A stretch of DNA of 64,000 nucleotides, from the NCBI RefSeq assembly GCF_001310815.1, contig NZ_BAZK01000008.1, forward strand, positions 186,001 through 250,000, read 5' to 3'. The DNA comes from Pseudovibrio denitrificans JCM 12308. Lineage in GTDB: Bacteria > Pseudomonadota > Alphaproteobacteria > Rhizobiales > Stappiaceae. Positions 12,232 through 57,090 of the stretch are shown piece after piece. The translations under genes and the position numbers were made by a program. Each line of letters starts with the position of its first letter. Position 1 is the stretch's first letter. The notes beneath the pieces are model-generated. The model was not told the DNA's origin. It was given only the letters and a program-made list of their open reading frames with translations, and ran no database searches.

Positions 12232-12240
12232 TATGGCCTC

Positions 12241-23763: not shown

Positions 23764-26700
23764 ATGGGTGAGTTTAGTCTTTCTAACGTAGTTTCAACAT
23801 GCGCAGCGGGACACGAAAATGTCGTGACCCGAATAGAGCAAGTTGCAAGGATCCAGGCCAATAAAACGGCTTTGGTTGGACAAGCAGCAGCGCTCAGTTA
23901 TGGCGACATGATCTCTTCAGCAAACCGGCTTGCTGGCCTGTTGCAATCTAAAGGGATTGGGCCGGAAGTTGCTGTTGGAGTGTGTATCCCTCGCGGCCCT
24001 GACGCAATCATCGCATTTCTCGCTATTCTTAAAGCGGGCGGTGTTTATGTCCCACTGGACAGCAAACACCCTCACAAACGCCTTGAGTTTATGGTTCAGG
24101 ACAGTGAAGCTGCCGTTTTGATTTGCACCGACGAGACAGAAGCTTTCGTTGAGGGACTCGTTGCCAATGTTTCGCGCTCAACCAAGATCGTAAACTACTC
24201 CAGATTAAATCCATCAGGACCCGGCACCTTTGAAGATCAAGTGATCAGGCAAGATCAGCTCGCTTATATCATCTACACGTCAGGCTCTACTGGCCAACCT
24301 AAAGGTGTGATGGTCGAGCATCGCGGATTGATAAATCTTGCTGAAGAACAAGCGCGCCATTTTGAGTTGGACGGAAATGCACGTGTACTGCAGTTCGCAT
24401 CCCTGGGCTTCGACGCATCCATATTTGAAATTCTGATGGCCTTGTGCAGCGGTGCAGAGTTACATTTCACTCCCAATGAAACATTGCTTGCTGGAGATAC
24501 GCTAAGGGAAATTGTTCGAGAAAGAACTATTTCTCACCTGACGCTGCCACCATCTCTTGTCAGTCGAATGGATCCATCGGACTACCCAAGTTTAGAGACA
24601 TTAGTGGTTGCTGGCGAGGCAATGCCATGGACGATCACGGAGCGATGGTCTGAACATGTTAATCTTATAAATGCTTACGGACCAACCGAAAACACAGTTT
24701 GGGCGACTCTGCATAAATGCAGCAGTAAGACCATGTCAGCAAGTACGGTTCCAATTGGCAAGCCAATTGCCAATGTGGACGTCTACATTCTGGATACAGA
24801 CCTAAAACAAGTTCGAGATGGTGAAGACGGAACTCTCTGGCTAGGAGGGGTCGCACTGGCGCGTGGATATAAAAACCGCCCTGATCTCACCAATGAAATG
24901 TTTCGACCAGTTCCTGGGGTTTCGACAGAAAGACTTTACAACACTGGCGACCGTGTACGACGTCTTGCAGATGAAACACTGGAGTTCCTTGGCCGTCGGG
25001 ATGCCCAAGTCAAAGTACGAGGCCATCGGATAGAACTTCAGGAAGTAGAAAGAAACCTCTCTGCTCTTGAAGACATTGAACATGCTCATGTGGTCGTCTC
25101 ATCATCGCGATCAAAAGATCATGAAATCATTGCTTACTTCACTGTTCGCGCCAGCGAAATCACCCCTGGCATTCAGCAGTTAAAGACCAAACTACGCGCA
25201 GTTCTGCCTGACTACATGATGCCAAACGCATTTGTGCGTCTTGACGAGTTTCCGTTAACAGTCAACGGGAAGGTAGATAGCAAGGCACTTCCTGCGCCGG
25301 ACAGGAGTGCACGCGGCGGGTCTTCCCAAGAGCTGCCACACACAAACACAGAGCAGTCACTCGCAGGTTTTTGGAAAGAAGTGCTAGGTGTAAATCCCGT
25401 CTTTTGTGGCGACACGCTTCAAACTCTCGGAGGCTCCTCACTGGATGCCGTTCAGTTTCTCACACGATGCAGGGAAGAGTACGGCAACATTCTCTCATTA
25501 AAGGATGTATTCACGGGCAAAACGCTCCGTGAACTGGCAGAGAAGATCCAAACAGGAAAAGGTTCTGAAACGCCAGAAAAGCCCTTAAATGCCTACAGTA
25601 TTGAAAGTGACACATTCCCTGTTTCGCATCAGCAAAACGGGGTGTGCTTGCTGGAGAAGCTCACACCAGACTCTCTTGCCTACAACGCTCAATGCCTAAT
25701 CCGTATTGAGGGAAATGTAGATGTATTAGCCCTGCAGAGCGCTCTGGATCTGATTGTTCAGCGACATGAGATCTTTCGCAGCACTTTTCATGAGGACGCA
25801 ACCGGCAAAGCCTACCAGAAAGTTCACGGTCCCGTCCCTGCCCGTCTGGATCAGGTGGTGTTGGATGCTCCAATGGATAGCCCTGATCTCTGGCAAGCTG
25901 TAGACGATGAATCTCAAGGGCTTTCGACACCAGTCAATTGCCGCTCGCTCGCTGGGTTCTGTTCAAGTTAAACGATGAGACATCGGCTCTCCTACACATA
26001 GAACATCACCTTGTTCATGATGGCTGGAGCGCGAACATATTCCTCTCAGAGTTTCTGGAGGCTTATGGTGCTTTTGCACATGGAGAGGAGGTCACTCTGC
26101 CTCCCGTTCCAGCTCAATATCGCCATTATGTGGGATGGCAACAAAGTGCCGATGCAGAACGCACTTATGAAAAGCAACTTGCCTATTGGAAGGAGCAACT
26201 TTCAGAGGCTAGCTTCACTCTTGCTCTTCCAACAGATACCCCGCGCCCTGAAACAATGTCTTTCAAAGGCAAACAGTCACGTTTGGAACTCAAAGGGACG
26301 CTCCTTCAAAAACTAAACGAGTTCTGCGACAAGAGTGGCCACACTGATTACACCGTGTTGCTCGGCGTCTTCCACCTCCTGCTCTCACGCTATACGGGAC
26401 AGAAAGATCTGCTCACGGGCAGTGCGGTCGCCAACCGAAAAACAAGCGCTTCAGAGCATATGTTGGGTATGTTCGTGAACAGCGTCGCCATACGATCTGA
26501 TCTTTCCGATAGCCCAAGATTTACTGAGTATCTTGAGCGTTTAAGGAGCACCCTATCCAGCGCTTATGAGAATGAAGAAGTTCCGTTCGAACGCGTCGTA
26601 CGCGAGTTGCAGCCGGAGCGTGACCTCTCCAGAAATCCCATCTTTCAAGTGGGATTTAGCTATCATAACTCAAAGATTCCAGAGCTCTCACGCGATGATC

Positions 26701-32059: not shown

Positions 32060-32095
32060 CGCAGAAGCAGGTCGTCAGCGTCTCTGGGAGGAACC

Positions 32096-35000
32096 ATGCA
32101 GGACGGACAAAACAAGCGAAAGATGCGCTCTCTGACACCGGAGCAGCTGTTAAAGCTACGCCAGCGCACCGCTCTCAAAAAAGCACCGCGAGATCAAGCA
32201 CCCCTGCCTTTATCTTTCGCACAAGAGAGGCTGTGGTTCCTTTCCCGCATGTCTGGAATAGGATCCGCCTATCACCTGACACTTGGCATACGCCTGCGAG
32301 GGGAGCTCGCCACGTGCTCTCTTCAAAACGCACTGGATCAATTGATCGCCCGCCACGAAGGCCTTCGTGCTTTTGTCTTCGAAGACGCTGGAGAGCCCGG
32401 GCTGCGGATTGCTCCTCCCACCTGCGGCTTACCTTTGCATCTGATCAACATTGAGGCTGAAGACGACTTAGAAGCTGCGATCCACCACGTGGCGAATGAG
32501 GAATGTACAAAACCGTTTGATCTGAAGACCGGCCCGCTTGCGCGTTGCTACCTTATCAGGGTGAGTGAGAGAGAGCATGTGTTGCTGCTTGTGCTGCATC
32601 ACTTCATTTCTGATGGTTGGTCCAATGGGCTGTTGCTCAAGGAGCTGAGTGAAAACTACACGCATCTGATCGAGACCGGACAACCGATTGAGCGCAACAC
32701 ACCTGAGCTCTCCTACGCAGACTATGCTTATTGGCAAAAACAGCCTGAGCAACAAAAGAGCTTTGAGAAACAGAAGGCCTATTGGGAGCAGCGCCTATCC
32801 GGAGCGCCAGAACGCTTGCTGTTGCCAACAGACCGCCAACGTCCGCTCCAACAAAGTTTTGAGGGGGACTTTCTACCTCTGGAGTTAGATGCTGAACTCA
32901 CAGAACAGGTAAGAGAGTTTGCCCGTGAGGCGGGGACAACTCCGTATCTGGTGCTTATGTGCGCGTTTGCAGTTGTGCTTGCGCGCATGTCTGGTCAGGA
33001 TGACATTGTCATTGGGACACCATCAGCTAACCGGGTTCGTAAAGATTTGGAAGAGATGGTGGGGCTGTTCGTCAACACGCTGGCACTCCGCTTCAACTTC
33101 GATGAAGGCATAACGGTGAGCCAGCTGCTGGCTCACACGCAAGATACATTCCTCGACAGTCAGGATAACCAATCTGTTCCCTTTGAGCAGGTGGTGGACG
33201 CGCTGAACCCTCAGCGATCACTTTCCCACACGCCGTTGTTTCAGATTATGTTTGCCTGGCAAAGTCTTGATGACGCAACACTTCGCTTTGCCGATTTGAA
33301 GCATGAACCATTTTCGGTTCCCCGCAGTGCATCGCAGTTCGATCTTACACTGGAGCTGGTGGACAACGGGATTAAGATTTCTGGTGGACTGGAGTACGCA
33401 ACAGCTCTCTTTGAACGGCAGTCCATCGAGCAACTCGCAGGTTATGTTCTTCAAGTGGTTCAAGGCATTTGCGAGGATCCAGAGCAATGTGTAGCTAGTC
33501 TGCCGATCATGGACGACACGGCACGTACCGAAACGCTAAAGACCTCCCTCTTGGCATCTAACAAGGCCTCCACTGCAGAGCCTATCCATCTTCCATTTGA
33601 AGACACAGCCGCCTCATATGGCGAACGGATTGCGATCATAGATGGTGAGGACGAACTCACATACGCTCAACTCAACGAGCGAGCGAACAAACTCGTCAGA
33701 TATCTGCGCTCACTTGGGGTTCAGAAACAGGACCACATAGCGATCTGCATGCAGAAGTCCGCAGATGCTGTCACTGCCTTGTTGGCTGTTCTGAAAGCAG
33801 GCGCAGCCTACATTCCTATTGATGCGAGTTACCCTCCTGCGCGGATCAACACGCTTGTTCAGGATTGCTCACCTAAGTGCATACTGGTTGATGCATATGG
33901 GGCAAAACAACTGGCCCATATGCCTGACCTCGCGGCGGAAGTTGTCCATATCGAAACCCAAGGAGATGAATGGGGTTTTCTGGATGGGCAGAACCTAACT
34001 GTTCCCATTGCCCCTGATGACCTCGCCTACATCATCTATACATCTGGTTCGACAGGACGACCTAAGGGCGTGATGGTGGATCATCGCGCAATCTGGACCG
34101 TCAGAGATGCCTGGAGCGAACTGTATCGTTTCGACGAGCCGCCACGTGTTTTGCAAATGGCTAACTTGTCATTTGACGTTTTCACGGCAGATCTTGTCCG
34201 CGCGCTTACGTTTGAAGGCACGCTTGTCCTTGTCAATCAGGATGAGCTGATCGATAGCGCAGCCTTGCTTGCTAAAATCACGCAGTATCATACGACCTTC
34301 GCAGATTTTGTTCCGGCAGTGCTGGATAGTTTGACAGCACACATACGGAAGAGTGGCGCAACTTCAACTCCCCTCAAAACCATCGTATGTGGATCCGACC
34401 GGTGGTCTTCAAAAGGTGCTGCTGAAGCGCGCAGTGTTTTCGGGCCTGACGCGCACATCATCCATGCCTATGGCTTAACTGAAACAGCGATTGATTGCCT
34501 TGCTCTCACCCTGCCTCAAACTTTCTCGCAGACTGACCGCCTCAGTTTAGGCGGGCCGATCAAAAATTACAGCGTCTTAGTTTTAGATCCTTCAGGCCAG
34601 CCTGTTCCTGAAGGCGTTGTCGGTGAAATCTGCGTTGCCGGAGCTGGACTAGCACAAGGGTATTGGAACGCACCTGAGCTAACCGAGCAAAAGTTCGCCA
34701 CTGTTGCGGGCCGTGATGATCCACGAGTTTTCAAAACAGGAGACCTTGGTCGATTGCTTCGCGATGGAACCATTGAGTTCCTGGGGCGCAATGACAGACA
34801 AGCTAAACTTCGCGGGTTTCGTGTAGAGCTGGGAGAGGTGGAAGCCGCGCTTGAAACCGATGAGCGCGTTCAAACTGCTATTTGCGTCGTAAACGAGAAG
34901 TCCGGAGAAGAACACCTGCTGGCCTATGTGGTTCTTTCCAGCGAAGACAATGGCGATGTGCTTGCTGAGCTCAAGGAAGGTTTGAGCCAAAAACTGCCTC

Positions 35001-38000
35001 ACTTCATGGTGCCTGCTGGCATTGCCGCAGTTCAGCAGATCCCCCTCACGCCAAATGGTAAGCTTGATCACAAGGCACTACCAGATGTTAATCCCTCAAC
35101 TCTTTCTCAGGCAGAGTTTGCCCCTCCACGGGAAGGGAAAGAAACAGAGTTAGCTCAGATCTGGTGTGATCTACTCGGCCTCAGCACTGTTGGACGCCAC
35201 GACAACTTCTTCACTCTTGGTGGTCACTCCCTACTGGCAGTGCGTTTAGCCCAACGTATCCGCGAAGTTTTCTCTGTAGATGTGGCGGCTACAATCGTAT
35301 TTACGGCACCAACACTTGCCACCCTTGCTGGAGCGATTGACTGGAGCTCCTCCAGTACAGGTACTCAGATTACTCCTGCTGACAGAACCAAGAAGCTTCC
35401 GCTTTCATCTTCACAGCAACGCCTGTGGTATCTGGCCGAGATGGAAGGGCAAAGCGAGGCTTATCACATGCCCCTTCTGCTCGAGCTGAAAGGCAAGTTG
35501 GAGGTCTTCGCCCTAGCTCAAGCCATCGAGACAATCGTAGCTCGTCATGAGACTTTGCGCACGCGGGTTAAGCAAAAAGACGGTACAGCCTATCTGGACA
35601 TTCAACCGGCAAATAAATGGCAGATGGAAGCACCAATACAGCTGGCTGAAGACGATAATCTGAAGGAGCAGGTTGCTCGGTTGATTGCAGAGCCTTTCGA
35701 TTTGGAGGCGGGACCACTCTTTCGGGCAATCTTGCTGCGTCGGGATGAGGCCCATCATGTGCTCGTGATTGTGATGCACCACAGCATCTCAGATGCCTGG
35801 TCCATGGGTGTCTTTAGCAAAGAGTTAAGCGAGCTCTATACAGCTCTGACCCAACAACAGAAGCCCAACCTCCCCGACCTGCAAATCCAGTATGCCGACT
35901 TTGCAGTTTGGCAGCGAGAAGAACTCAGCAAAGGCACATGGAACGAACAGAAGCACTACTGGGGTTCCAAGCTTGAAGACTCACCAGTACTCCTAGAGTT
36001 ACCGTTGGATCATCCGAGACCCAAGCGGCAGTCCTTCAAAGGGGCAGCAGTTCCGCTGGAACTGGATGCTTCCTTATCCCAGAGAACAAAAGAGTATTCA
36101 GCTGGGAACGGTGGCACTGTGTTCTCCACGCTTCTTGGGGCCTGGGCACTCACGCTTTCCAAACTTTCAGGTCAAACGGATCTTGTTGTTGGCAGTCCGG
36201 TTGCCAACAGAGACCACGCGCAGCTCGATAAGCTGATCGGCTTTTTTGCCAACACGCTTGCCTTGCGGGTGGGTGCAAACAAAGACCTGCTCCTGACCGA
36301 GTATCTTTCGCAAGTTCAGGAAACGGTGCTGGAAGCTCAGCAAAATCAGGACCTCCCCTTTGAACAGGTCATTGAGCACCTCAATCCGCCTCGAAGCCTT
36401 GCACACGCACCGCTCTTTCAGGTGATGTTTGCCTGGGAGGGCGAGAACAATGATCAGTTTGAGCTTCCCGGTCTCTCTGTTGAGCTGCTCCACCATCACT
36501 ATGGAGGAGCCAAGTTCGATTTGCTGCTGTCACTTCAGAACGTAAACGGCCAGTTGAAGGGAGCAATCGAGTTCGCAAGCGACTTGTTTGAACCAGAAAC
36601 AGCTGCTCGCATTGGACGTTACTTTGAGTATGTCCTCGCGCAACTGGTCGCGAACACCAACGCAAAACTCAGTGACATAAGCCTGCTGACTGAGTTGGAG
36701 CAAACTCAGGCATTGGAGGCTTGGCAACAACGCTCTGTGCCATATCCTGAATTAGAATGCATCAGCAGGCAGATTGAAAAACACGCGGCAGAAACGCCCG
36801 CTGCGACCGCTGTTATCCTCGGGCAAGAAACACTCAGTTATGGCGAGCTAAACAGGCAGGCCAATCAGCTTTCCCACACGCTCCGGCAGCAAGGTATTGG
36901 CGCCCAAGCTAACATTGCACTGTGTGTTGACCGTTCCACGCAGATGGTCGTCACACTGCTGGGCATATTGAAGGCGGGAGCCGCAGTAGTTCCGCTGGAT
37001 CCTGCTTACCCCCAAACGCGGCTTCAGGTTATCCTGCAGGATGTCCAGCCAGACCTCATCATCACAACAAAAGCATTAAGACCCAAACTCCCGCAAGAGT
37101 TTGCAGAAGCAATAGCATCCATCGAGGAGCTCAAAACAAGGTGTCAGTCGGCATCAGCGGATAATTTTGCGTATACGCCTGCCCCGCTTGATCCTGCCTA
37201 CGTGCTTTATACATCTGGCTCGACAGGGAAACCCAAAGGCGTTGCGCAAACACATCGCATGCTGCGTAACCTGGTGCACTGGCAGTTAAAGCAAGGCCCG
37301 ACGAATAACGGTCCGGCACGTGTTCTTCAGTTTGCGTCGCTCAACTTCGACGTGGCTTTTCAGGAAGTTTTCTGCACGCTGTGTCAAGGCTCAAGTCTCG
37401 TGCTGATGACGGATACGCAGCGCAAAGACATCGGCAATCTTGCTGGCTTCATCAAGTCCAACGGTGTTGAACGTGCCCACTTGCCCTTTGCAGTCCTTCA
37501 GCAGATGGCAGGCCTTTTTGAAGCCGGACACCTACCGGACGGGCCTGCTTGTGAGGTGATTACAGCGGGGGAAGCGCTGCTCGTCAATGATGGCCTCCGC
37601 AGGCTCCTTAAGGCACTGGGTGGGCGTCACTTTTACAATCAGTACGGCCCCACCGAAACGCACGTTGTGACCCAGCATATTCTGGACTGCGGGCACATGG
37701 AAGATTGGCCAGCTTCTCCTCCTATCGGTAAACCCATGGATAACACCAGTGTGTTCCTCCTGGACGATGGCATGCGACCTGTGCCTCCTGGAACCACCGG
37801 TGAAATCTACGTTTGCGGAGATAATCTAGCCTCTGGTTACTTCGGCAATGAGGATCTGACCGCTGACCGGTTCATCTCGCACACATTCGGATCACAGCCA
37901 CCTCTTCGCCTGTATCGTACTGGCGATCTGGCTGCGTATCTCCCGGATGGCACTCTGGTATTTCATGGGCGTGCTGATGATCAAGTGAAGTTTCGCGGGT

Positions 38001-42499: not shown

Positions 42500-45400
42500 A
42501 CGTGCACCAACTGCTCAACCATTTCGCCAGTCACAATGTGAGCCTGCAAACAGATGGTGAAAAACTCCGTTTCAAGGCCCCAAAAGGATTTTTGGAGCCA
42601 CAACTGGCTGCTGCGCTGAAAGCGCAAAAATCTGAGTTAATTTCTTTATTGCAGCAGCAGGCGCAGGCCGAAAAATCAACAGGAGTTCCGCTTTCGGCTT
42701 CACAGCGTCATTTGTGGTACTTGCATCAGTTGGAGCCTGATAGTCCGTTCTACAACAACCCCATCGCGCTGAAGGTGAGCGGAGCGCTTAACGTTGAAAC
42801 ACTCCACCGTGCGGCGAATGCCGTTGTTGCTCGTCATGACATGCTCCGTGCACAGTTTGGTCTCTGCGATGGTGTTCCTCAGCAGACTTTTGCTGAACAT
42901 TCAGAGCTTCCACTTGAGGTTCTGGATGTGTCTCAGCTCAGCGATGAAGAGCAAAGTCTCGCACTGAACGATCATGTCCAGAAGGAAGCCAGCAAGCCGT
43001 TTAACCTGGAAGACGGGCCACTTGTCCGCTCCAGTTACGTGAAGCTCTCAGAAAGCGAATATGTCTGGCTGGTGAACCTGCACCATATTGCTGCTGATGG
43101 CTGGTCAATCGGATTGTTCTTCAACGAAGTAACCGCCCATTACAACGCGCTCAGGCAAGGCACGACGCCTGATGTTCCAACGCTCAAGATGCAGTATGAG
43201 GACTATGTGGTCCATAGCCAGCAATCGCCCTCTCGGGAACAAGAGCAAACCCAATATTGGACCGAGAAACTTGCCGGGTTGCCTGCCTTACTTGACCTGC
43301 CAACAGATAATCCCCGCCCCGCAGAGCAGACCCACAATGGCGCTCACTTTGAACTCGTGTTCGGGGATGATCTGAGTGACCGAGTGCGTTCTTTCTGCAA
43401 AAGCAGATCAATCACACCTTTTGCGCTGTTTCTTGCTGGGTTTGCCGTTGTTTTATGGCGCTATAGCAAACAAGAAGACATCTGCATCGGAACCTCTTTT
43501 GCCAACCGCCATACCGCTGAAGTGGAACCGTTGATTGGCCATTTCATCAATACCCTCGCCTTAAAAACACAGGTATCAGCGCACGGCACCTTTGCAGAGT
43601 TGGTGTCACAAGCGCAGACGATCATTTTAGAAGCTTTGGACAACCAAGACCTGCCTTTTGAGAAGGTAGTTGAAGCTGTGAACCCGGAGCGCTCACCAGC
43701 CCATTCGCCTCTATTTCAGGTCATGCTGATCTATCAAAACCTTCCAGCAGGTTCCACGCACATGGACGGGGTGGAGATAGAAGCGCTTGCGACGGACAGC
43801 CAAACTGCGAAGTTCGATATCACGCTGGAAGTGTTTGAGCGCGGGCCTTCGTTCAGCCTCGGCTTTGAATACAACAAAGACTTATTCACGCAGGCTCGCA
43901 TCGAGCGCATGGCCAGGCATCTTGAATGTTTGCTCTCAAACGCCATTGATGATCCGCATGGGCAAATCGATCAGATCGAGTACATCACGCCAGAAGAACG
44001 GCACCTTCTTACGCAAATCTGGCCTCATGGTGAAACGCACGCACTAAGCTCAACGTGCATTCATGAGGCATTCGAAGCACAGTGCCAGCGCTCCCCCGAT
44101 GCACCAGCTCTTGTCTGCGGTGAGGCGGTGTGGAGTTACGCCAAACTCAATGCCAAGGTAAATCAGCTTGCACGTCATTTGCAGGAATGCAGTGTCAAAG
44201 CAGGCAACCCCGTTGGTTTGCTCCTTGAACGTTCCACTGAACTGGTCATCACCACGCTGGCAACCCTCAAGGCCGGAGGGCATTTCATCCCACTCGAGCC
44301 CGGCCTGCCCTTGAAGCGCCTTGAGTATATGGTGCAAGACAGCCAGCCTAATCTGATAGTGACGCATCCGGCCACTGCCGATGTGATGGCCGGCCTAGCA
44401 ACCACCTGCGATGTAAACTCGCTGTCATTGGATAAAGAGTTGTTGGAGGAAATCACCCAATCCTACGACAACACAAATCTTCCTGCGAGCAGCAGGAATG
44501 CGGATGAGCTCGCCTATATCATCTACACCTCTGGCACCACCGGGGTTCCCAAAGGCACCAGGCTCACTCATCGCGGACTGGTCAACCTCGTAGACTGGAG
44601 CAATCGCACCTTCCCGACTAAGCCCGGAGATGCGCTCTTGCAAAAGACGCCGATGGGGTTTGATGCCGCTATCTGGGAGTTTTTCTGGCCGCTGTGTTCC
44701 GGTTCGTCACTGGTTTTGGCTCCCCCATCAGCTCATAGTTCGCCAGCTGGACTGGTGCAGCTCTGTGTCTCGCACAACATTGCAGCTGTTCAGTTTGTCC
44801 CGGCAATGCTGGATCTCTTTCTTGATGAACCTCTCGTCCCTCAATGCACGCACCTAAGAGACGTGTTCTGCGGTGGAGGTGAGTTGAATGGTGCATTGAT
44901 GCGTAAGTTCGCCGACAAGCTGCCATGGGCGACGTTGCACAATGTGTACGGTCCAACAGAATGCACCGTGGATACCACCTGGCACAGCATTTTGCCTGAA
45001 GACCACAACAAGTGGGCAGCTCCCGTTGGGCGCCCTATCAGCAATGCGAAAACCTATCTGCTCGACGAGAACATGTCGGTTGTACCAGTTGGGCTGGTGG
45101 GAGAGCTCTACATCGGTGGTTCTGGCCTCGCCTCCGGGTATCTGAATGCCCCGCAACAGAACGCATCTGCTTTCGTAGAAAGCCCGTTTGCTCCAGAAGA
45201 AACGCTCTACCGCACCGGTGATCTTGCCTTTTACGACGAACAGGGACAGCTGATTTTTGCAGGTCGCAAAGATAACCAGATCAAACTCAATGGCTTCCGC
45301 ATCGAACTCTCAGAGATTGAAGAGGTTTTGCTTGAACATGCCGATTGCCGCAGCTGCACAGCCATTCAGGTTCAGCGAGAGGGCGGCGATGCTCAACTGG

Positions 45401-46613
45401 CGCTGTGTTACACCTCCTCAACGGGCGAGCCCTTGCTTGAAAACGATCTGCGCCAGCACCTTTCCAGCAAGCTTCCTGATTACATGTTGCCTCACACTTT
45501 GCTGCACATGGATGCGATCCCGCTCACCAATAATGGCAAGATAGATTACCGCGCAGTTGAAGTTGCCGTGATGGCACATGAGGCCGTGTTTAAGGTCAAT
45601 CAGGAAAGTCCCCGCGACCATATCGAACTGCAGATCTATAACATCTGGCGAGAGGTGCTCCTGCACCCATCTATCGGCATCAGCGACAACTTCTTCCATG
45701 TGGCGGCTCATCCATTGCCGCGATCAAGGTCGCGCACCGTGTTGGCGAAGCGTTTAAGGTTCAAGTGCCTCCAAAGACCTTCATTTTAAATCCAACAATC
45801 GAAGCCCTGGCCAGTTGGATACGCGCCGGAGCACCTAAAGAAAATGCTCAAGACAACCTGATTACGTTCCGTGAAAGCCAAAACGGCGAGCACGTGGTGT
45901 GTGTTCATCCTGCCGGAGGTACTGCATTTTGCTACCTGTCTCTGGCAAAGATCCTGGCCGATGACATCGGTGTCTATGGCCTTCAGTCCCCGGGTCTGAA
46001 CAGTGGAGAAGACACGTTATCTTCCATCCCTACCATGGCAGAGGCTTACCTGAAACAGATCGAGCATATCGCGCAGGGCAAAATCGTACTGACAGGCTTG
46101 TCTTTTGGCGGTTATGTGGCGTTTGAAATGGCACGCCTCCTCAAAGCGCGCGGAAATGACAATGTGAGTGTCATTCTCCTCGATACTCAAGGGTTTGAAG
46201 AACATGAACGCGATAGCCTCGCGCCTGTGGACCTCGATGAGTTTCGTGACAAGCTGGTCAAGTTCAACGGGATGTACCCGGGCATCGACGATGCGCAAAT
46301 AGAGCGCTATCACCGGGTCTACAATCACAACCGGTCATGCGTTCCCAGCTATGAGTGCCAACCCCTAGAGGTTCGCGTGGTTTTTGTTCAGGCCCTCGGG
46401 TCTCTCAACAAAGACTTTTTGCATGAGTTACGCCAGTTCTGGATAGAACGGGTGACAGGCAGCTTCATGACCAGATTGGTTCGCGGAGACCATTGGGAAC
46501 TGCTGGAGTCGGAAGAAATCCAGCGCGTCAAAAAAGCAATCTCCTACGAGTTTCAGTTGTTTGAGCGGAAGAACTCCCACACTCTTTCCCCTGCTGTACC
46601 TAGTGTCGCTTAG
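42496..46613 (+). CDS. Nonribosomal peptide synthetase 3 (TubC docking-C-A-T-TE), one frameshift
   Basis: Two frames (42496-45789 and 45765-46613) join into 1372 residues after restoring one G near 45702, which recreates the carrier motif FFHVGGSSIAA. Residues 1-50 (LLNHFASHNVSLQTDGEKL) are a TubC-type N-terminal docking domain that receives the chain from another protein. C7 has HHIAADGWS at 196, A7 covers about 520-1015, T7 about 1045-1110, and the thioesterase has HPAGG, the nucleophile GLSFGG and the histidine in RGDHWELLE. The hand-read A code DAWQFGVVDK resembles Gln. This module ends the first line and releases the chain by hydrolysis or cyclisation. Confidence 0.92.
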
Positions 46614-46621
46614 AGGTCATC

Positions 46622-49600
46622 ATGAACAGCACTATCTCACATGACCATTCAGCCTCTGATTATGTTGACTTGAAGTTGGGTGAGGAAGGTCCGGTCCAGT
46701 CCTCACTGTTTGAGAGCATCAGTTATTATGCTGCACGTTTTCCAAAACTGACAGCCGTTCAGGACCATGACAGCACGCTCACCTATCTGGAACTCAACAC
46801 ACATTCTTCCCGGTCCGCAGCACTGCTGAGGCAGCATGGTGTGAAGCAAGGTAATGCTGTTGCTGTTTGCTTGCCGCGGTCTCAGGAACTCATTGTCCTC
46901 ATGCTTGCAATCCTGAAAGCAGGAGCGACTGTTGTCCCGCTGGATGCTGCAAGTCCACCAAACAGGCAAGCTGCTATTTTAGCTGATAGTCAGGCGCGCT
47001 TCCTGATCACATCACAAGAAGCACACTCCAGATCCGTTCCCTCGGCAACATACAAAACTCTCCATGTAGGCGAGTTGGTTGCTGGAAATTTGCCCGATGA
47101 CCAAGGCCAGTTCCAAGCCTCCTCAGTCGCCAGCACGGCTTTTCTTTTTTACACGTCCGGAACAACGGGAAGACCAAAGGGTGTGCAAGTTCCTCTGACG
47201 GCCATTGAGAGGCTCGCGCATCAGCCGCGTTTCGTTCCAATGTCCATTGGAGATCGCTACGCACACATTTCCAACCCGGCATTTGATGCCCTCAGCTTTG
47301 ATGTCTGGGTGCCGCTTTTAACAGGTGGCTGTATCGTTGTTTTCTCTGCAGAGGAAACAGCTGACTTTGAAGGTTTTGCGAGGAAGCTGGAAAAGCGCTC
47401 CATCAAAACTATGTTCATGACAGTCTCGCTGTTCAACGCCATGGTTGATTACGGGGCAACCTGTTTCACCACACTCGAACATCTGTTGATCGGTGGAGAG
47501 CAAATCAACCCGCACACCGTACAGGGCTGGTATGAGGCAAACCCACAAAGCACTTGCCAAATACACAACATCTATGGCCCTACAGAGTGCGCCACTTTTG
47601 CATTGAGCTACCCCATACCCCGCAGCTTTAGCGGTGATACTGTTCCAATCGGCAGACCCATTGCCAGCACAGACTGTCAGCTGCGGTCTTCCAATGGCGA
47701 GGAAGCCAACCCAACAGAGACAGCTGAACTCTACGTTGGCGGAGCTGGCGTAGCGCATGGCTATCTGAACAGAGAAGAGGAAACACAGCACAGCTTTGTC
47801 GAGCTTTCAGATGGCCGGAGGTGGTATCGCACCGGTGATCTGGTCCGCCTCAACAACAAAGGCTCATAGAATATGTTGGCCGCGTTGACAGGCAAGTTAA
47901 AGTCCGCGGGTTTCGAGTCGAACTGGAAGAAATTGAACAGGGGCTCCAGCAACTTTCCAAGGTGCGACAAGCGTGTGTACTCACGCGTCAGGAACCCGGA
48001 AAACCGCTCGAGCTACACGCGTATCTGACTGCAGATAAGCGCCTAAACTATGCCGATCTTGATGCCCACATGTCAGCGCATCTACCGGATTACATGCGCC
48101 CTCATCAGATCTTTTGCATTGACGAAATGCCCCTGAATGCAAACGGCAAAATTGATCGAGATGCCTTCCAGAAGATGGACTGCGCTCCACTCCGCCCTAC
48201 ACATTCTTCCGGTGGAGCTACAGATGAAATCCTCACGGATATTTTGAAGGCCGCAGAGTTGGTTTTGAGTGTGCCTTATTTGAATGGTGAGGACACGGTG
48301 CTGACCGCAGGCGGAGACTCCCTCAAGGCGATTAGTCTTGCAAATCGCCTGAACAAGACACTTGGCTATCGCTTAGTCCCGTCCCTGCTCCTAAATCTGA
48401 CTTTTTCTGAGCTTGCAGACACGATCAGAAAACAAGGCCCCCAGCTGAACGTCTTGCCTCCGGTTCCTTCTCCTTCAAACGTCACGAAAGCCCACGTCAC
48501 GTCTGAGCAGAAGCGTTTGTGGCTGCTGCAACAAAAGAACCCTTCTGACACCTCTTACAACACGCCCTTCACTTTCCGGTTCGCCGGAGAGCTCAATCCA
48601 GAAAAACTAGAGAGAGCGGCAGGAGCTCTCGTAAAACAACATCCGGCACTGCGCACCAGCTTCCACCTTACAGATGATGGAGTGGAGCAGCACATTGCAC
48701 AGAGTAATCCTGAGGTGTTTCATTACCACGGTGTCTTAGAGCAGAACGAGATCGCAGCGCTGCAAAACACGCTCTTCAGTCAACCGTTTGACCTTGAAGT
48801 GCCTCATTTGTTTCAGCTTCATCTTGCACATGAACCCGATGGTTCAAGTGTGCTGATCCTCCATGCGCATCACATCGTTTTGGATGGCTGGTCCCTCAAT
48901 ATCCTGTTTGAGGACCTTTCCCGAGTTTATCAGGCTAAACTCGACGAAGAGGTCTCCGAGCAGAAAAAGGTCTCCCTCACCCCGCTGGATTTTGCGGCTT
49001 GGCAGGCGCAAACTTGGGAAAGCGAGCATTACAAAACACAACGGGAACAACTCTTCAAAATCTACGAGGAAGCAGAGTTCTCTGCATGCTGGTCACCTGT
49101 GTTGAACTCAAAACATGCTGGTCAGGAAGGGCCGGCAGGCCGCACGCGTTTGATGCGCCTTGAAGACGCTCATAGGGCAAAGTTGATCGCAACTGCGCAT
49201 CAGTTTTCTCTGACACCTCATCAGGTTTTCCATTCTCTTTTCGCACATGCGCTTTATGCGCATTTGGGCAAATCAAGATTTACAATCGCGAGCCCAATAG
49301 CAAACCGCAACACAGCAGAGTTTGAGGCGACTGTTGGAATGTTCGCCAACACAATGCTGTTACCGGTGGTGATCGATCCTGCCCAAACCATTGGACAGAA
49401 CACAAGCGCATTGGCCGAATTTTCCAAACGCACACTTGCCTGTCAGGAGGTTGCTTTTGAACATGTCGTAGATCACTTGCAAAAGGCGAACCGTTTATCA
49501 GGTCTGCCTTTCGAGTTCATGTTTGCGACTGAAAACACGCGCTATGAAACGCTGAACCTGAACGGCGAATATTCGCCGCCATCTTTCCCGGAGCACATCA

Positions 49601-52600
49601 CTCCTAAGTGCCCGTTGTACCTTTCAGTTCTGGATGAGTTTGAGACCTACCAGTTCTATTGGGAGTATGATCTTGCTTACTTCAGCAGGGAGGACATTGC
49701 GCAGCTGGAACAAGCCATGCTCGCTGGGTTATCTCAAGTAGAACTGGAAGAACCCGCAGGCGATATTTTGAAGACCGACAAGCAGCAACGGGCATCTCAT
49801 CTCAAAGGGGGTGATTTAGCCCTGCCACATAAAACAGTGGCAGCCTGGTTCCAAGATCAGGTTCTGCAAACACCTCATGCCTCTGCTCTGGCGTGGAAAG
49901 ATAACACACTAACTTATCAAGAGCTTGGCAAACTGACAGATACGCTCGTAGCACACCTGCAGTCTACGGGCGTTGGTGCTGTCGATCCGGCAGAGCCATT
50001 GCGTATCGCGCTCTACATGGATGCCTCTGCCGAGTACATCATTGCGCTACTTGCTCTGACAAAGCTGGGCGTAACAGTCGTGCCGCTGGACCTCAGCTAT
50101 CCCCAAAAACTGCTGCAAGCCGTTGTCTCACAAGCCAAGCCAGTGGCAGTTCTCCATCAGGCAGGAGCACCCTACTCACCAGAGCTTCAACAGGGTGATC
50201 TCCTCCTAATTCCGGTGGAACTGGAAGACCTCAAAGCCCCTCAAGATGTAGCGGCTTGGGAACTCCCTGATAGCGGAAGACCGCTGTACACCCTGTTCAC
50301 CTCAGGTTCGACAGGCCACCCCAAAGGTGTAGACGTCTACAACGAAACACTCTGCAACTTGTTGCATTGGCAGCAAGAACAAGGAGAGCTACCCGCTGCA
50401 GAAAGAACCATGCAGTTCTCTAAGCTGGCCTTTGATGTTTCGTTTCAGGAGATATTTTCGACACTCTGCTCCGGTGGCTGTTTCCATGTCATTGATCCTG
50501 CCTGGCGGCAGGACATGCGATGCCTGCTGACATACATGTGCGACAACACCATTGAGCGCATCTATATGCCTTTTGTGGCTCTGGAGTTGTTCTGTGAAGC
50601 TGCTTTAACGTTCGAGATCTTCCCAGCTGCCTTAAAGAACGTGGTGACAGCGGGCGAACAACTTTATTGCACCAGAGCTCTGCGCGATTTCTTCACCAAA
50701 CTGCCTCAGGCTTCCTTGCACAATCACTACGGCCCAACAGAAACCCATGTGGTCTGCGTGCATAGCTACATGGTTCTCCCGCAAACTGGCCAACCCGTCC
50801 TCCTATTGGCAACCCTATAGCCAACACGGAGATCTTGCTTGTCGACGACAGCTACCAACCCCTTGCTCCTGACGAACCGGGCCATCTCCTCATTGGCGGC
50901 CAATGGGTCCGTCACTGCTATTTGCACAACGCAGAGTTAAACGAAGACCAGTTCGTTGAACTCCACCTAAATGGCAGCTCTGGCCGATCACAGCTTTACT
51001 ACAAAACAGGCGATATTGGCGTTCTAGATAAGACTGGCCGCCTGAACTATCAGGGCCGTCATGATCATCAGGTGAAAATCTCTGGCCATCGGGTCGAACT
51101 TGGCCAGCTGGAAATGTCTCTCATCGATCACGGTGCAGTTGAACAGGCGTCCGTTGTGTTCGATGGAGAGCACAAAAAATTGCACGCCTATGTCAGCCTT
51201 CGGGACAGTTCCATCAGTGCAGATGATCTTGACCGCCACCTTTCAACCCGGCTTCCAGATTACATCCGTATCGACGAGTTCAGGCAGATCGAAAACTGGC
51301 CGCGCACGCCAAGTGGCAAGATCGATCAGAGAGCGTTGAAGCTGTGTGATTGGACTCTGCTTGAAACGAAGAAACGCAAAAAACACGCAAAAAACGCAAA
51401 CCAACGTACAAACCAACTCATCACGGCATTTGAAGATGTTGTCGGCTCTCCAATCTCTGCAGATCAAACTTTCTTCGAAGCTGGTTGCTCATCTCTGCAG
51501 CTGATGCGTTACCAAATGCATCTGAGCAAGGAGTTAGGCGTGAAGGTGAGTATTGCTGAGCTGTTCCGCCACGTGACACCTGCTAAACTGGCGGAACACA
51601 TTGAAAAGGATGGTGAAACGGAGCAGTCGAGCAGCAAAGAGCAAGCACCTCAGAGCGCGGATAAAGTTGCCATCATCGGCATGGCACTCAGAGTTCCAGG
51701 CGCAGATAATCTTGCAGAGTTCTGGTCCATGATGCTCGAAAACCGAAGTGGTATCGAACATTTCACCCCGGATAATCCTGGTTTCGTTGGCGCCCGAAGC
51801 CAGATGAGCGAAATGCTGTCGTTTGATCCGGAGTACTTCTGCATCAGCCCCCGCGAAGCCGCGCTCATGGATCCGCAGCAACGCCATTTCATGATGAGCT
51901 GCGTACATGCTCTTGAAAACGCTGGTATTTCTCCTCACCACAACGACCAGAACATCGGCGTTATTGCAAGCTGTGGTGAAACAACCTACTACCACGCCGC
52001 CCTCCGTTCAGCCTCCTCTATCGCCCTTCCCGACAAGTTCCAAATGGCCTTGCACCACGAGAAAGACTTCCTCGCAACGAAGGTTGCCTTTCAGCTTGAT
52101 CTCAAAGGCCCAGCCATAACGTTACAAGCTGCTTGCGGTAGTTCACTGGTTGGCATTCACAGTGCTGCAGGTATGCTTAAAAATGGCGAATGCGATGTTA
52201 TGCTTGCAGGCGGTGTCCTTGTCGATCCCGACATGACAGAGGGCTATAAGTATCAGTCACAGCACATCTTTTCCAAGGACGGCAACTGCGCACCCTTCAG
52301 CGATAATGCCAGCGGAACCATTGGTGCAAGCGGTGTAGGTGTCATGGTCCTGAAGTGCCTGGACCGCGCTCTAGCCGACGGAGATCGCATTTACGCAGTT
52401 ATTGAAGGATCAGCCATCAACAACGATGGACGGTCCAAAATGAGCTATACTTCTCCGTCTGTTTCCGGTCAGGAGAAGGTCATCCGACAAGCTCTTGCAA
52501 ATGCTGGCTTAAGCGGCGATCAAATCGGTTACGTCGAAGCTCATGGAACAGGGACACAACTGGGCGATCCCATTGAAGTACAAGCACTTTCCAATGCCTA

Positions 52601-55596
52601 TGGCAAACTTACAGAAGGTTCCTGTGCACTTTCATCCGTTAAAAGCCAGATTGGACATCTAGGAGCCGGTGCCGGCGTTCTTGGCCTCATTAGAGCAGCG
52701 CTCTCGGTTTACCATGGATACTTGCCCCCAAATCTTGGTTTTGATCGTCCCAATCCAGAACTGGGTTTGGATGAAAAAGGCTTTTATGTTCCGCCTGTTG
52801 GCAAGCCCTGGGAAAGCCCTGAACCCCGTTATGCAGGCGTAAGCAGCTTTGGGATTGGCGGCACCAACACACATGTTGTCTTAGGTCAAGCCTCGCAACA
52901 ACCGGAGATTGAAGCAATTACTCCGCTACGTAACAACAGCTCGTCTCCCTCCAACACCGCTAACCGGCAAAGCACGCCGCCACCGTGGGATCATCCGGGC
53001 TATAGCTTCAACCTTCGACAGTTTACTGTTTTCGAACAGGATTTTTCCCAAACCCAAGAGAACATCAACCTCCCTAAGCGGCTTCCAGAAAGCGAATGCT
53101 CAGTCAAATGGTCTGGCAGCCAGTGTGCCGGATCGAAAGCAGCAAAGCTGGCAAAGTTCCAAGAACGGCAGTTGTATTACTGGACGCAAACAGCAACCCT
53201 GATGATCTATTGCCACTCAATGAAGTCTATAAACAGGTTGTTCCTGCCTTCATTGAAGGCCAAGCTTTTGCTTCAGTCTCAGGCAACCTGTCAGTAAATC
53301 CATTCTGCAAGAACTCCGTGGAGCAGCTTATGGAGCGGCTCTCAAATATGGATCTGGAAGAAGTAGACTGGATACATTCCCTTCCGCTCTTTTACAGGGG
53401 GACAGGAGATAAACTGGCTGACCTCCAGCAAGCTCAAAGCGTCTGCCTCGATAGCCTGACTTATCTTCTTCAAGCTCAGCAAGAATGCGATCTGAAAATT
53501 TCCAGAATATGCTTGCTCTCCAGTAGAGCTTTGCCGGTGTTCGGTACCGTCGAACAGCCTCTGCATGGCATGCTTGCAGGTCCATTATCAGTTATTCCTC
53601 AAGAGTTTGGTATTCAAACTCTGTGGTTGGACGTTGAAGATACTCCGCCCGATACAGGGTGGTCTGAAGTTGCCTTTGCACTCTCACTTCAAGAACAAGG
53701 CAAAGAGCGTCTTGCATTGCGAAATGGTTTTGCTTGGCAGTCCGAAACCTCTACTTTGCCCACAAACAACCAAACTACCGCCATTGCTGAAGTAGAAAAA
53801 GCAGGTCTCTTCGTGGTGACCGGTGGTAGTGGTGCGATCGGAACTCAGGTTTGCAAGAGTTTACTGTCTGACCCTCAATCTCAAGTCGCAATCGTTTCAC
53901 GCAATCCGAGTGTCCCAGCAGACTTATTGCAAGAGATCTCCAGAATACATCTGATCAAAGCAGACATAGGAAACCCTGATACTTGGGCAACGACTTTAGA
54001 TAGCATCGCAGAGATAAACTTACCCATTACCGAGATCATCCATGCATCAGGTGTCAGTGAAGGAAACCTGATCTCGTTTCGAGACCCTGCTGAAACTCAC
54101 AAGAAGATGCGTTCAAAGTACGAGGGAAGTATTTTTGTCGAGCACTTTATTGAGAGATTCCAGCCAACAAGGGCTATTTACTGCTCATCCATGTCTGCCG
54201 TTCTTGGTGGAGCTGGCCAGCTCGACTACGCCTCCTCTAACGCTTTGATGGACAGTTATGCGTATTTCAGGAATCGAGCAGCACCTCACACAGTGAGAAC
54301 GGCCATCAATTGGGAAATCTGGAATGAGAGCGGAATGGCTGTTTCTGCTGAGTTACACGATGAACGTCATCAGCAACATCTGAAGGTTGGGCTATCAAAT
54401 GACGAAGGACGGCGTATCTTCTCTCAGATACGGACGGCATCTCTCCCGCAAGTCCTGGTTAGCACTTGCAACATTGAAGACTCTCAATACTTCTATCGAT
54501 CTCTGATCGGATATAATCTTGAAAACACATCTGATAGTGCTGAGACAAAACTCACTTCCATTCAAAATCAAACAGAAACTCTTTTACTAGAGCAGCTTGG
54601 GCTTAATCAGATCGATCATGACGAGTGCTCCATGATCTGGGGATGGACTCCCTTACTCTTCTCGATCTTGTGGGTTTGCTTGAGAAATACGGCGTCCGGT
54701 TGTTACTTTCTCAAGTTCCTAGAAACTCCTCTCTAAGACAGATTATGGAGTTGGTTGAACAGCAGCTTGAGGTCAAGCCTAACTCCAACAAGACCACATG
54801 GTCTGATGCTATAGCTGTGCATGAATGGCAGGCTGGATATGATGACGAGACCGTTGTTCTCATACATCCGGTTGGTGGTGATGTGGAAGCCTATCGTGAA
54901 CTGGCGGCAAAACTTCCTGATACCGCTCAGATCCTTGTCATAACTGACCCTCACCACAGTAACCCCGACCTCACGGAAATCAGTCTAAAAGAAAGAGCAA
55001 GGGTTTACGCCGATGCCTTAATCAAAAACCTAGCAAAACAACGAGTTCATTTGATCGGCTGGTCATTTGGGGCATGGGTCGCACACGAAATTGCACTCTA
55101 TTTACATGACAAGTCAGGTATCTCTGGCCAGTTGACATTGATTGATCCGCCAGCCCCAAACTCAAGCGCAGATCTGCAGCAGCTAAGCGAACATGAAATT
55201 GAGCAGATATTCTTAAAGGAGCTGAGCGAAAAATGGGGAGCCGATAACGTCCAATCTAGCGAAGAGAGCATGCGCGGAGAACAACACGAGTATCGGGCAG
55301 CTCTTGTCCGCTGTACATCCTCTAACATCAAGGCGATGGTCAATCACCAAATGCGCCCGGTTCCTTCCTGGAAAGCGAATGTGATTTTGGCATCTGAAAC
55401 TGCCGAAGGGTTGAATGAAAACCAAAACACCAGCGCAAACAACCGGATAAGTTGGCTTGAAGTTCTTCCAAATCTACAGAACTGGAAGGTTATTGAGGCC
55501 GATCACTACTCCATAATGAGGGGTGAGGCGCTAGATGACGTGCTCAGTATCATGGACTTGCTCGATACACGCGAGTTGATAAGAATGGAAGGGTGA
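46622..55596 (+). CDS. Hybrid NRPS-PKS 4 (A-T / C-A-T / KS-KR-T-TE, no AT), four frameshifts
   Basis: Five frames (46622-47869, about 47870-50820, about 50800-53100, 53096-54736, 54625-55596) make one 2992-residue enzyme when one base is restored near each of 47867, 50798, 53097 (giving PESEWLSQMVWQPV) and 54632. The order is A8, T8 (AGGDSLKA), C9 (HHIVLDGWS), A9, T9 (AGCSSLQ), KS (51.66-52.90 kb; active Cys in QAACGSSL, His in EAHGTGTQLGD and KSQIGHLGAG), KR (GGSGAIG; catalytic SSMSAVLG...YASSN), T10 (LGMDSLT) and TE (GWSFGAW). No acyltransferase motif lies between KS and KR. Hand-read codes are DAFFLGITFK (Ile/Val) and DVQYVAHVVK (Pro). It starts eight bases after NRPS3, yet has its own initiating A-T and its own release domain. 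Its 3' end overlaps the convergent PPTase gene by 66 bases. Confidence 0.9.
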
Positions 55597-56298
55597 GAGA
55601 ACATCTATAACTGTAACACCTGGGTCAACAGCAAGAGTACAGCTGTAACCTTTCCAGCGAAGAGGAACATCAAACAGCGCCATGGATAGAGCTTCAGAAG
55701 TAATGGTCGGTTGGTGCTGAGATAACTTCACATCAAGCGAACGAAGATCATCTCGAAGCCCTTCACCGGTCGCCTTCAATACGGCTTCTTTACGGGTCCA
55801 GCAACGATAAAACATCTCATTTCGCTCCTGTTCGAAGCACCTTGCAAGCGCTCTACGCTCAGCCGGATGACAAACAGCAGCTATCAGATCAGTTGATTGA
55901 TTATCTGAGCGGATCAACTCGATATCAACGCCCAAAGGCTCCCTGCGAGCAAATGCAACAGCAACCAATCCGCCAGAGTGGCTTATGTTGAACGCTGGAT
56001 AGCCATTTATGTAGGGCTTGCCTCGATCTCTAATCGCAAAAGGCTCAAGAGGAATCGTAGCTTTGAGCGTAGTTCGAACAATAAAGCGGCCCAACTCATA
56101 TGCTCGCCTGTCTCGAATAAACCGATAGCGTGCACTTCTTTCTTTTTCTTCCTCGGTCAACATGCAGTCATCCGGAAATGGAAACTCTATCGGCACGAGA
56201 ACCAGCAACACCCTTTTGATCTCATAGCAATGTTGCCACTTCCACCTCAGAGTTTGAAACCATTCTTGAGCGCTTTTCGCAGAAATTGAAATGGGCAC
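55531..56298 (-). CDS. Sfp-type 4'-phosphopantetheinyl transferase
   Basis: This 255-residue enzyme moves phosphopantetheine from coenzyme A to the serine of each carrier domain, turning the megasynthases on. The magnesium-binding GVDIEL (about residue 130) and CWTRKEAVLKATGEGL (about 175-190) are clear, as is the N-terminal FNISHSGG. The start is a GTG at 56298, only six bases after the type II thioesterase stop, so the two are co-transcribed. The last 66 bases overlap the 3' end of the NRPS4 gene on the other strand. Ten carrier domains in the cluster are its likely clients. Confidence 0.93.
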   Translation of the reverse strand: MPISISAKSAQEWFQTLRWKWQHCYEIKRVLLVLVPIEFPFPDDCMLTEEEKERSARYRFIRDRRAYELGRFIVRTTLKATIPLEPFAIRDRGKPYINGYPAFNISHSGGLVAVAFARREPLGVDIELIRSDNQSTDLIAAVCHPAERRALARCFEQERNEMFYRCWTRKEAVLKATGEGLRDDLRSLDVKLSQHQPTITSEALSMALFDVPLRWKGYSCTLAVDPGVTVIDVLSPFHSYQLACIEQVHDTEHVI

Positions 56299-56304
56299 AG
56301 TATT

Positions 56305-57090
56305 TTACGCCAGCTGCAAGGTTGCGGGTTGAGACATCTGATGGACCACGTTTGCAGCGTGCTCTCTTATCTGATCAAGTACCTTGATCGGACATTCTTC
56401 AATAAAGAAATGTCCACCTTCCACGTCGTCAATAACTACGATTTCAGAGCTCAAAGTCGTCCAATCTTCCACTTTACTCCGCTCGACAATTTGGTCTTCA
56501 CATCCTGCAAAAGCAAAAATGGGGGACTTAACCTTCCAAGGGGCACGTGGCCGATAAGATTCGCAGAGCTTAAAATCACTGGTGATCGCAGGTAGCAATA
56601 AGCTCACCAACTCATCATGCTCAGCGATCTGCTTAAAGTCAGGATTAAACAAGATGAGCTCTTCAATCATTTCCTCTCGTGTACATCCTTCAAGGAACGG
56701 AAGGCTTCTTGGAGCAAACGGAGAGGCTGAAGCCAGCACAAACAGCGCTGTTGGTTTAAGATGATGTTGCTTGGCAAGACTGAGAGCCAACTCATAAGCA
56801 ATCCATCCGCCCATACTGGACCCAAGCAGCGCAAATGGAGCTTCACCGAACTGCTCAATCTCTTGAGCTAACTGATCGACAACCTCTTCCATACAATTGA
56901 TTGATGGGTCTCTAAATCGAACTCCACGGCCAGGAAACTTCGCTGGCATCACGTTCACCTGATCACCAAGCGGCACCTTCCATCGGTTGTACAAGCTCGT
57001 ATCGCCCCCTGCCTGAGGCAGGCAAACCAAGTTCAGCTTATTCGGATGGGCCTCTGCATCAAACCAAGGAGAAGGCATCAGAAAACTCAT
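56305..57090 (-). CDS. Type II thioesterase (NRPS editing)
   Basis: This 261-residue alpha/beta hydrolase starts with CLPQAGGDTSLYNRW, the typical N-terminus of GrsT/RifR-like thioesterases. The nucleophile elbow is GSSMGGWIAYELA (about residue 92) and the histidine is in EGGHFFIEE near 235. Such enzymes remove wrong or stalled acyl groups from carrier domains and raise product yield. It is transcribed first in a two-gene minus-strand operon with the phosphopantetheinyl transferase, at the right border of the cluster. It adds a third thioesterase to the two fused TE domains. Confidence 0.93.
   Translation of the reverse strand: MSFLMPSPWFDAEAHPNKLNLVCLPQAGGDTSLYNRWKVPLGDQVNVMPAKFPGRGVRFRDPSINCMEEVVDQLAQEIEQFGEAPFALLGSSMGGWIAYELALSLAKQHHLKPTALFVLASASPFAPRSLPFLEGCTREEMIEELILFNPDFKQIAEHDELVSLLLPAITSDFKLCESYRPRAPWKVKSPIFAFAGCEDQIVERSKVEDWTTLSSEIVVIDDVEGGHFFIEECPIKVLDQIREHAANVVHQMSQPATLQLA

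What the first reader, a model, noticed from the sequence alone, without database searches (positions are those of the whole stretch)
23764..57090. Large NRPS-PKS cluster with a predicted thiazole peptide and no recognised product
Four megasynthase genes carry ten carrier domains, nine adenylation domains, one Cy-A-T-Ox module and one ketide module, with PPTase, type II thioesterase, exporter and tailoring genes around them. Hand-read specificity codes give Phe / D-Thr / Gly / Arg / Pro-like / thiazole(Cys) / Gln on one line. I know no compound from this group of bacteria with that order. Domain content is seen in the sequence; residue predictions are inference from the GrsA-based code.
Basis: partly seen in the sequence, partly recalled or inferred. 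Interest (0 to 1): 0.88.

Follow-up and report, generated by a model that had tools for sequence, protein, structure and literature searches.

The report
Known pseudovibriamide gene cluster, one pocket changed
This is the already described gene cluster by which the sponge bacterium Pseudovibrio makes pseudovibriamide signalling peptides, so the finding is largely ordinary, although the enzyme pocket that picks the first building block has changed and the product may start with a different amino acid.

Summary
But its product family is known. The host is a Pseudovibrio and the genes match the published ppp cluster that makes pseudovibriamides. A 92%-identical copy with four open genes lies on a 421-kb RepC replicon of a sister species. 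The frame breaks look like sequence errors: single-base losses are at least as frequent elsewhere on the contig and in three chromosomal stretches. One new point: the loading A domain has code DAFTVAAVWK where the four relatives examined have DASTVAAVCK; the other eight codes match. Pseudovibriamides carry Tyr1, so this cluster probably loads Phe, as in pseudobulbiferamides, or another hydrophobic residue. New member of a known kind; low interest. In passing: in one sister species a fresh tandem duplication has added a C-A-T module to the line.

The parts
18984..19895 (-). pppK: Fe(II)/alpha-ketoglutarate dioxygenase (TauD family), published proline hydroxylase
   Evidence: Pfam TauD E 3.4e-58; 95% aa identity to the G009 copy; role from PMC11796379 section 6
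20026..20586 (-). pppJ: accessory protein of unknown fold, required for the pppD arm in Ab134; C-terminal end altered by a frame break near 20.06 kb
   Evidence: 86% identity to G009 over 168 aa; break; role from PMC11796379 section 5; single-sequence model all helix but only pLDDT 54
20543..21271 (-). pppI: SGNH-like hydrolase/acyltransferase candidate (GDSH and DPIH motifs), required for the pppD arm in Ab134
   Evidence: motifs invariant in 4 of 4 aligned orthologues; weak Pfam SGNH hit E 0.0078, below its cut-off; PMC11796379 section 5
21225..22271 (-). pppH: GSCFA-family protein, published as SGNH-hydrolase-like, required for the pppD arm in Ab134
   Evidence: Pfam GSCFA E 6.1e-50; 95% identity to G009; PMC11796379 section 5
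22306..23460 (-). pppG: MFS transporter (N-terminal end altered by a frame break near 23.4 kb)
   Evidence: Pfam MFS_1 E 3.4e-29; 95% identity to G009 over 371 aa
23764..32059 (+). pppA: A1-T-C-A2-T-C-A3-T (modules 1-3: ureido starter, Thr to Dhb, Gly/Ala); cut by frame breaks near 25.9 and 31.1 kb
   Evidence: Pfam; breaks; codes
24409..25275 (+). Loading A domain A1, stretch from motif A4 to motif A10, code DAFTVAAVWK: the only one of nine codes that departs from the ppp relatives
32096..42499 (+). pppB: C-A4(Arg)-T-C-A5(Pro)-T-Cy-A6(Cys)-T-Ox (modules 4-6; thiazole); whole frame
   Evidence: Pfam; Cy motif; codes; no gap against G009 in this gene
42496..46613 (+). pppC: TubC_N docking-C-A7(Gln)-T-TE (module 7); frame break near 45.7 kb
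   Evidence: Pfam; break; code
46622..55596 (+). pppD: A8(Val/Ile/Leu)-T-C-A9(Pro)-T-KS-KR-ACP-TE, no AT found; modules 8-10; frame breaks near 47.9, 50.8, 53.1 and 54.6 kb
   Evidence: Pfam; breaks; codes
55531..56298 (-). pppE: 4'-phosphopantetheinyl transferase
   Evidence: Pfam ACPS E 1.5e-18; PMC11796379 section 5
56305..57090 (-). pppF: type II (proofreading) thioesterase
   Evidence: Pfam Thioesterase E 1.2e-28; PMC11796379 section 5

Best explanation
The locus is the ppp biosynthetic cluster of a Pseudovibrio species, on a large RepC-type replicon. PppA-B-C (modules 1-7) build a ureido-linked heptapeptide X-CO-Dhb-[Gly/Ala]-Arg-Pro-thiazole-Gln: the A1 residue is turned round by a ureido-forming C domain, Thr is dehydrated to Dhb, Cys is cyclised by the Cy domain and oxidised by Ox. 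The thioesterase of PppC releases it with water (pseudovibriamide A type) or onto the hydroxyl of the Val/Ile/Leu-Pro-ketide made by the AT-less PppD and finished by PppH-K (pseudovibriamide B type). PppE activates the carriers and PppF clears misloaded ones. Shown here: genes, domains, order, codes, conservation. Taken from the published Ab134 genetics and proposals: product, release and accessory roles. Inferred from the code alone: that X here is not Tyr but probably Phe, so the linear product would equal a pseudobulbiferamide and the depsipeptide would be a new congener. The frame breaks are read as sequence errors, not decay.
For: Named close relatives are Pseudovibrio (P. axinellae and two Pseudovibrio sp. 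at 73-75% over pppC; the other five loci, 23-37%, are in other genera). Window 13176-57154 aligns to G009:C3 over 43,980 bases at 91.6% with 14 gaps. Gene set and domains match the published description: pppABC NRPS, pppD NRPS-PKS without AT, PPTase E, TEII F, transporter G, SGNH-like H, I and J of unassigned families, dioxygenase K. Eight of nine codes equal that of at least one of four ppp relatives. RepC and a type III PKS, which the paper places on the ppp plasmid, are on the same contig in both genomes. Mismatches against G009 fall mostly on third codon positions in every megasynthase gene, e.g. pppD 174/113/475, i.e. the proteins are under selection. Single-base losses: 12 in the 43.98-kb cluster alignment, against 94 in 246.8 kb of the contig (80 of them in the 199.3 kb outside the aligned block that holds the cluster) and 18 in 54.6 kb of chromosome.
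Against: A1 departs from the code of the relatives at two of ten positions, so 'makes pseudovibriamide' in the strict Tyr1 sense is not supported. Three of four megasynthase genes, pppJ and pppG are broken as read; without raw reads, real lesions cannot be excluded, and the gap counts include intergenic sequence, where real indels are common. rpoB and the main dnaE are whole in this genome, so errors do not hit every gene.
Confidence: 0.95

Rival explanations
1. A decayed, silent ppp cluster: the frame breaks are real and the strain makes nothing, or only part of the product.
For: Seven frame breaks in three megasynthase genes plus two in accessory genes.
Against: All nine are losses of a single base; such gaps are as common or commoner outside the cluster (0.27 per kb in the cluster alignment, 0.40 per kb in the rest of the aligned contig, 0.33 per kb in three chromosomal stretches). 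Losses outnumber single-base extras 94 to 35 and 18 to 6, which points to the assembly. Third-position bias is kept in every 1.2-kb segment of pppA-D. Genome completeness is 94.9% against 99-100% for the 15 other genomes of the genus.
Confidence: 0.05
2. A different, new NRPS-PKS pathway that only resembles ppp.
For: The loading A domain code differs at two of ten positions, and A1 is the most diverged of six A domains compared with G009 (69 of 490 aa against 35-55 of 505-522).
Against: Collinear 44-kb DNA match at 91.6% to a ppp-type cluster with open frames, same accessory genes, eight of nine codes the same.
Confidence: 0.02
3. A ppp cluster that still loads Tyr: the A1 pocket changes are neutral or include sequence errors, and the product is ordinary pseudovibriamide.
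For: S239F and C331W are one-base changes each against G009 and the assembly has many errors, though the errors recognised are losses, not substitutions.
Against: A third pocket-lining change (V243M) and neighbouring changes lie in the same segment, and the four relatives examined are invariant at 239, 243 and 331. F239 and W331 should fill the space that S239 leaves for the Tyr hydroxyl (recalled structural knowledge).
Confidence: 0.25

Closest known systems
ppp cluster of Pseudovibrio brasiliensis Ab134 (pseudovibriamides A, B, C); PMC11796379: abstract, sections 3, 5, 6, 7, 14 and passages read; the first report (its reference 10) not seen
   Same: Genes A-D, E, F, G-K; NRPS and NRPS-PKS architecture with Cy and Ox, TE in modules 7 and 10, missing AT; plasmid with a type III PKS; eight of nine codes as in ppp relatives of the genus
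   Different: A1 pocket code DAFTVAAVWK instead of DASTVAAVCK in four ppp relatives; frame breaks in the present assembly; pppL-P (published as not required and not in all strains) not traced
mbp cluster of Microbulbifer sp. MKSA007 (pseudobulbiferamides); PMC10616845: abstract and section 2 read
   Same: Same assembly-line logic; Phe-ureido-Dhb-Gly/Ala-Arg-Pro-Thz-Gln, the order predicted here
Detoxins, rimosamides, chitinimides (named in PMC11796379 section 3 and PMC12911931 passages and discussion)
   Different: Their clusters were not compared here

Membership tests
ppp / pseudovibriamide cluster family | Gene set and order K-J-I-H-G / A-B-C-D / E-F | tested here: met
   (against G009; gene names from PMC11796379)
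ppp / pseudovibriamide cluster family | Seven-module NRPS ending in TE, with Cy and Ox in module 6 | tested here: met
ppp / pseudovibriamide cluster family | PppD: two NRPS modules and a KS-KR-ACP-TE module without AT | tested here: met
   no AT domain in window pieces at E 0.001 or in the open G009 copy at E 0.01
ppp / pseudovibriamide cluster family | A-domain codes of modules 2-9 | tested here: met
   8 of 8 equal to at least one of four relatives; A3, A8 and A9 read from two pieces each beside a frame break
ppp / pseudovibriamide cluster family | Loading A domain code as in the relatives (DASTVAAVCK; product Tyr1) | tested here: not met
   DAFTVAAVWK; so the Tyr1 product is not claimed, only the cluster family
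ppp / pseudovibriamide cluster family | Location on a plasmid with a type III PKS | tested here: met
   RepC and a chalcone/stilbene-type synthase on the same contig in G000 (C8) and G009 (C3)
ppp / pseudovibriamide cluster family | Whole reading frames | tested here: inconclusive
   broken as read, but by the gap type seen over the rest of the contig and in chromosomal stretches
ppp / pseudovibriamide cluster family | Ureido-forming and dehydrating C-domain subtypes | not tested
   C subtypes other than Cy were not classified
ppp / pseudovibriamide cluster family | Ureido linkage, Dhb, thiazole, depsipeptide in the product; effect on swarming | not testable with these tools
   needs LC-MS and mutants
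mbp / pseudobulbiferamide cluster | Phe at position 1 | tested here: inconclusive
   code points to a hydrophobic non-Tyr residue; no mbpA sequence to compare

The most novel reading that the evidence does not exclude
The A1 pocket of this Pseudovibrio ppp line has been recoded (S239F, V243M, C331W) from Tyr to Phe or a smaller hydrophobic residue while the rest of the line kept its codes, so one genus makes two versions of a motility signal that differ only in the capping residue, including a Phe1 depsipeptide that none of the papers I read reports; with the fresh module duplication in sister species G005, the family looks to be diversifying at its first half, perhaps into species-specific signal dialects.
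Probability: 0.45. Interest if true: 0.4.

Novelty: new member of a known kind. Interest (0 to 1): 0.22.

Why it matters
The cluster itself is known, which settles the 'orphan' claim. Its value is as a natural variant: a closely related cluster in which only the starter pocket has a changed code lets one ask what the capping residue of a ureido signal does for motility or antidote activity, and whether position 1 is where the family diversifies. It also shows that a tool-free hand reading of specificity codes gave the residue order of a published peptide.

Tried and rejected
Plasmid collection searches with pppC and with most of pppB found only matches under 60% identity (2790 and 719 records, at E limits 1e-5 and 1e-100; records near the window's genome may be left out), so no named plasmid copy. 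The Pseudomonas loci found with pppC (36-37%) and the A1 search in their three genomes (at most 41% identity) gave only generic NRPS similarity; I did not treat them as the published Pseudomonas ppp clusters. Looking for the A1 codes of the window, of the relatives and of one in-between form in papers gave 0 papers, and a survey of codes (PMC12283262, passages only) holds its tables in a form that could not be read; so the Tyr and Phe meaning of the codes rests on the published products and on recall. PppI and PppJ profiles against the PDB gave nothing convincing (best E 0.1 and 0.045), and single-sequence models were poor (pLDDT 38 and 54), so no fold search was run. I considered a swap of the A1 domain from elsewhere; the differences from G009 are spread over the A domain without a sharp block, so point changes are likelier. 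D-Thr and an epimerase were rejected. PMC12016493 was seen in passages only; the other papers of the listings were seen as listings only.

Rows dropped: only alignments of at least 1500 bases and 85% identity, not overlapping a longer one, were counted; A-domain pieces scoring 15 bits or less were left out; G004 was not fetched at length, so codes come from four of the five ppp relatives found (G002, G005, G006, G009). The pppI alignment has no G005 row, because the fetched stretch ends before it. In one search, 8 of 16 genomes pass E 1e-60, but two of them (G003, G010) only with generic NRPS matches of 34-41% identity; I count 6 of 16 as ppp carriers.

Full report

What it is. A scan of named genomes with the pppC frame found P. 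axinellae DSM 24994, Pseudovibrio sp. Alg231-02 and Pseudovibrio sp. Ad37 at 73-75% identity over 1071 residues; the other five of eight loci (23-37%) are in other genera. Contig lengths 72,693 and 61,364 tie the first two to G006 and G002. Among 16 genomes of the genus (one per species, this one included), the pppA start is found at 61-87% identity in five others: G009, G002, G004, G006, G005, and the same five hold pppC at 66-92%. In G009 a 43,980-base collinear stretch at 91.6% identity covers window 13176-57154 with four open frames of 2779, 3479, 1373 and 2998 aa. This is the published ppp cluster: pppABC NRPS, pppD hybrid without AT, pppE PPTase, pppF type II TE, pppG transporter, pppH-J accessory proteins, pppK hydroxylase acting on proline (PMC11796379, sections 3, 5, 6, 7, 14). 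The paper speaks of a type III PKS on the same plasmid as ppp (passage); both G000:C8 (421,911 b) and G009:C3 (420,747 b) carry RepC and such a synthase. The paper gives ppp in two-thirds of sequenced Pseudovibrio genomes; here it is 6 of 16 species-level genomes.

Specificity codes. Aligned to GrsA (ruler checked), the nine codes are DAFTVAAVWK, DFWSVGMVHK, DIVQLGLVYK, DVADVGAIDK, DVQHIAQVVK, DLYNMSLIWK, DAWQFGVVDK, DAFFLGITFK, DVQYVAHVVK (the third, eighth and ninth are read from two pieces beside frame breaks). Codes 2 to 9 each equal that of at least one of four relatives. Only code 1 differs: DASTVAAVCK in the four relatives against DAFTVAAVWK here, with a third pocket change at 243. A1 is also the most diverged of six A domains compared with G009 (69 of 490 residues; others 35-55 of 505-522; A3, A8 and A9, which straddle breaks, were not compared). 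I read this as a change away from Tyr, most likely to Phe; because F239 and W331 should both shrink the pocket, a smaller residue such as Leu is possible. This is inference from the code (meaning of codes recalled; no paper in the library holds either code).

Frame breaks. Against G009 the window lacks single bases at 12 places in the 44-kb alignment (nine of them inside ppp genes), and has two extra stretches (11 and 2 bases) upstream of the cluster; pppB has no gap. If this were decay of one cluster, the rest of the replicon should be cleaner. It is not: 94 single-base losses against 35 single-base extras over 246.8 kb aligned on the contig (80 of the losses in the 199.3 kb outside the block that holds the cluster), and 18 against 6 over 54.6 kb of three chromosomal stretches. 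These counts include intergenic gaps and real differences. rpoB and the main dnaE are whole, while a second dnaE-type gene is split in this genome and not in the three others searched (one of those others, G002, has its rpoB match in two pieces). Mismatches fall mostly on third codon positions in each of pppA-D, in every 1.2-kb segment. The plain reading is sequence error in a working cluster.

How it works. As published or proposed for Ab134: PppABC makes the heptapeptide; the PppC thioesterase frees it with water or passes it to the hydroxyl of the PppD product; PppK hydroxylates proline; PppH, I and J are all needed for the PppD arm and may propionylate it or load the AT-less module. Nothing here tests these steps. 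One small addition: PppI has invariant GDSH and DPIH motifs in 4 of 4 orthologues aligned with a sub-threshold Pfam SGNH hit (E 0.0078), so both PppH (GSCFA) and PppI look SGNH-like, as would suit an acyl-transfer pair; PDB profiles and models gave no support.

Masses. Pseudovibriamide A1 is reported at m/z 844.2 and B1 at 1156.3; Tyr1 with one extra CH2 over pseudobulbiferamide A computes to 844.34, and the Phe1 counterpart to 828.35, a direct test.

A variant seen in passing. In G005 a gene of 1103 codons between pppA and pppB has the domains C-A-T. Its last 1779 bases are 99.94% identical to the A3-T end of pppA and its first 500 residues are identical to those of pppB; the repeat is 3318 bases apart, about 3.4 kb long with 4 mismatches, and the switch lies in a sequence shared by the starts of the A3 and A4 domains. 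This looks like a fresh tandem duplication that adds one Gly/Ala module (predicted octapeptide), unless it is an assembly fault.

Verdict. The recoded starter pocket is the only new element in the window.

Noticed in passing
L023 8039-11347 (-), genome G005, between its pppA and pppB: An extra C-A-T gene of 1103 codons: C part identical to the start of pppB (500 of 500 aa), A-T part 99.94% identical to module 3 of pppA (1779 bases), repeat spacing 3318 bases. A fresh tandem duplication that should add a Gly/Ala module to the peptide, or an assembly fault.
   Followed up: partly
window 5801-9461: Minus-strand alanine-racemase-fold/D-serine-dehydratase-like gene next to two genes matching the two parts of transketolase.
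   Followed up: no
window 10714-15930: Tripartite tricarboxylate transporter TctA/B/C genes beside a TctD-like response regulator and a 2CSK_N sensor kinase.
   Followed up: no
window 222-4830: ABC transporter permease and ATPase genes followed by a GHL6/beta-galactosidase-trimerisation-type protein.
   Followed up: no
window 62345-63418: Phytanoyl-CoA dioxygenase family gene beside a TetR-type regulator.
   Followed up: no
contigs C33, C31 and C55 of G000: 8 of the 16 condensation-domain matches lie outside contig C8, on C33, C31 and C55, so the genome has other NRPS genes; one of those domains is split between two frames.
   Followed up: no
G010 (same genus), contig C1: A sister species without ppp-like pppA has very long megasynthase frames of 11849 and 9903 aa.
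   Followed up: no
window 57154 onward against G009:C3: Synteny with G009 breaks just after pppF: the next window match lies about 11 kb further along in G009, perhaps where the dispensable pppL-P genes sit there; the one check of those genes failed.
   Followed up: partly
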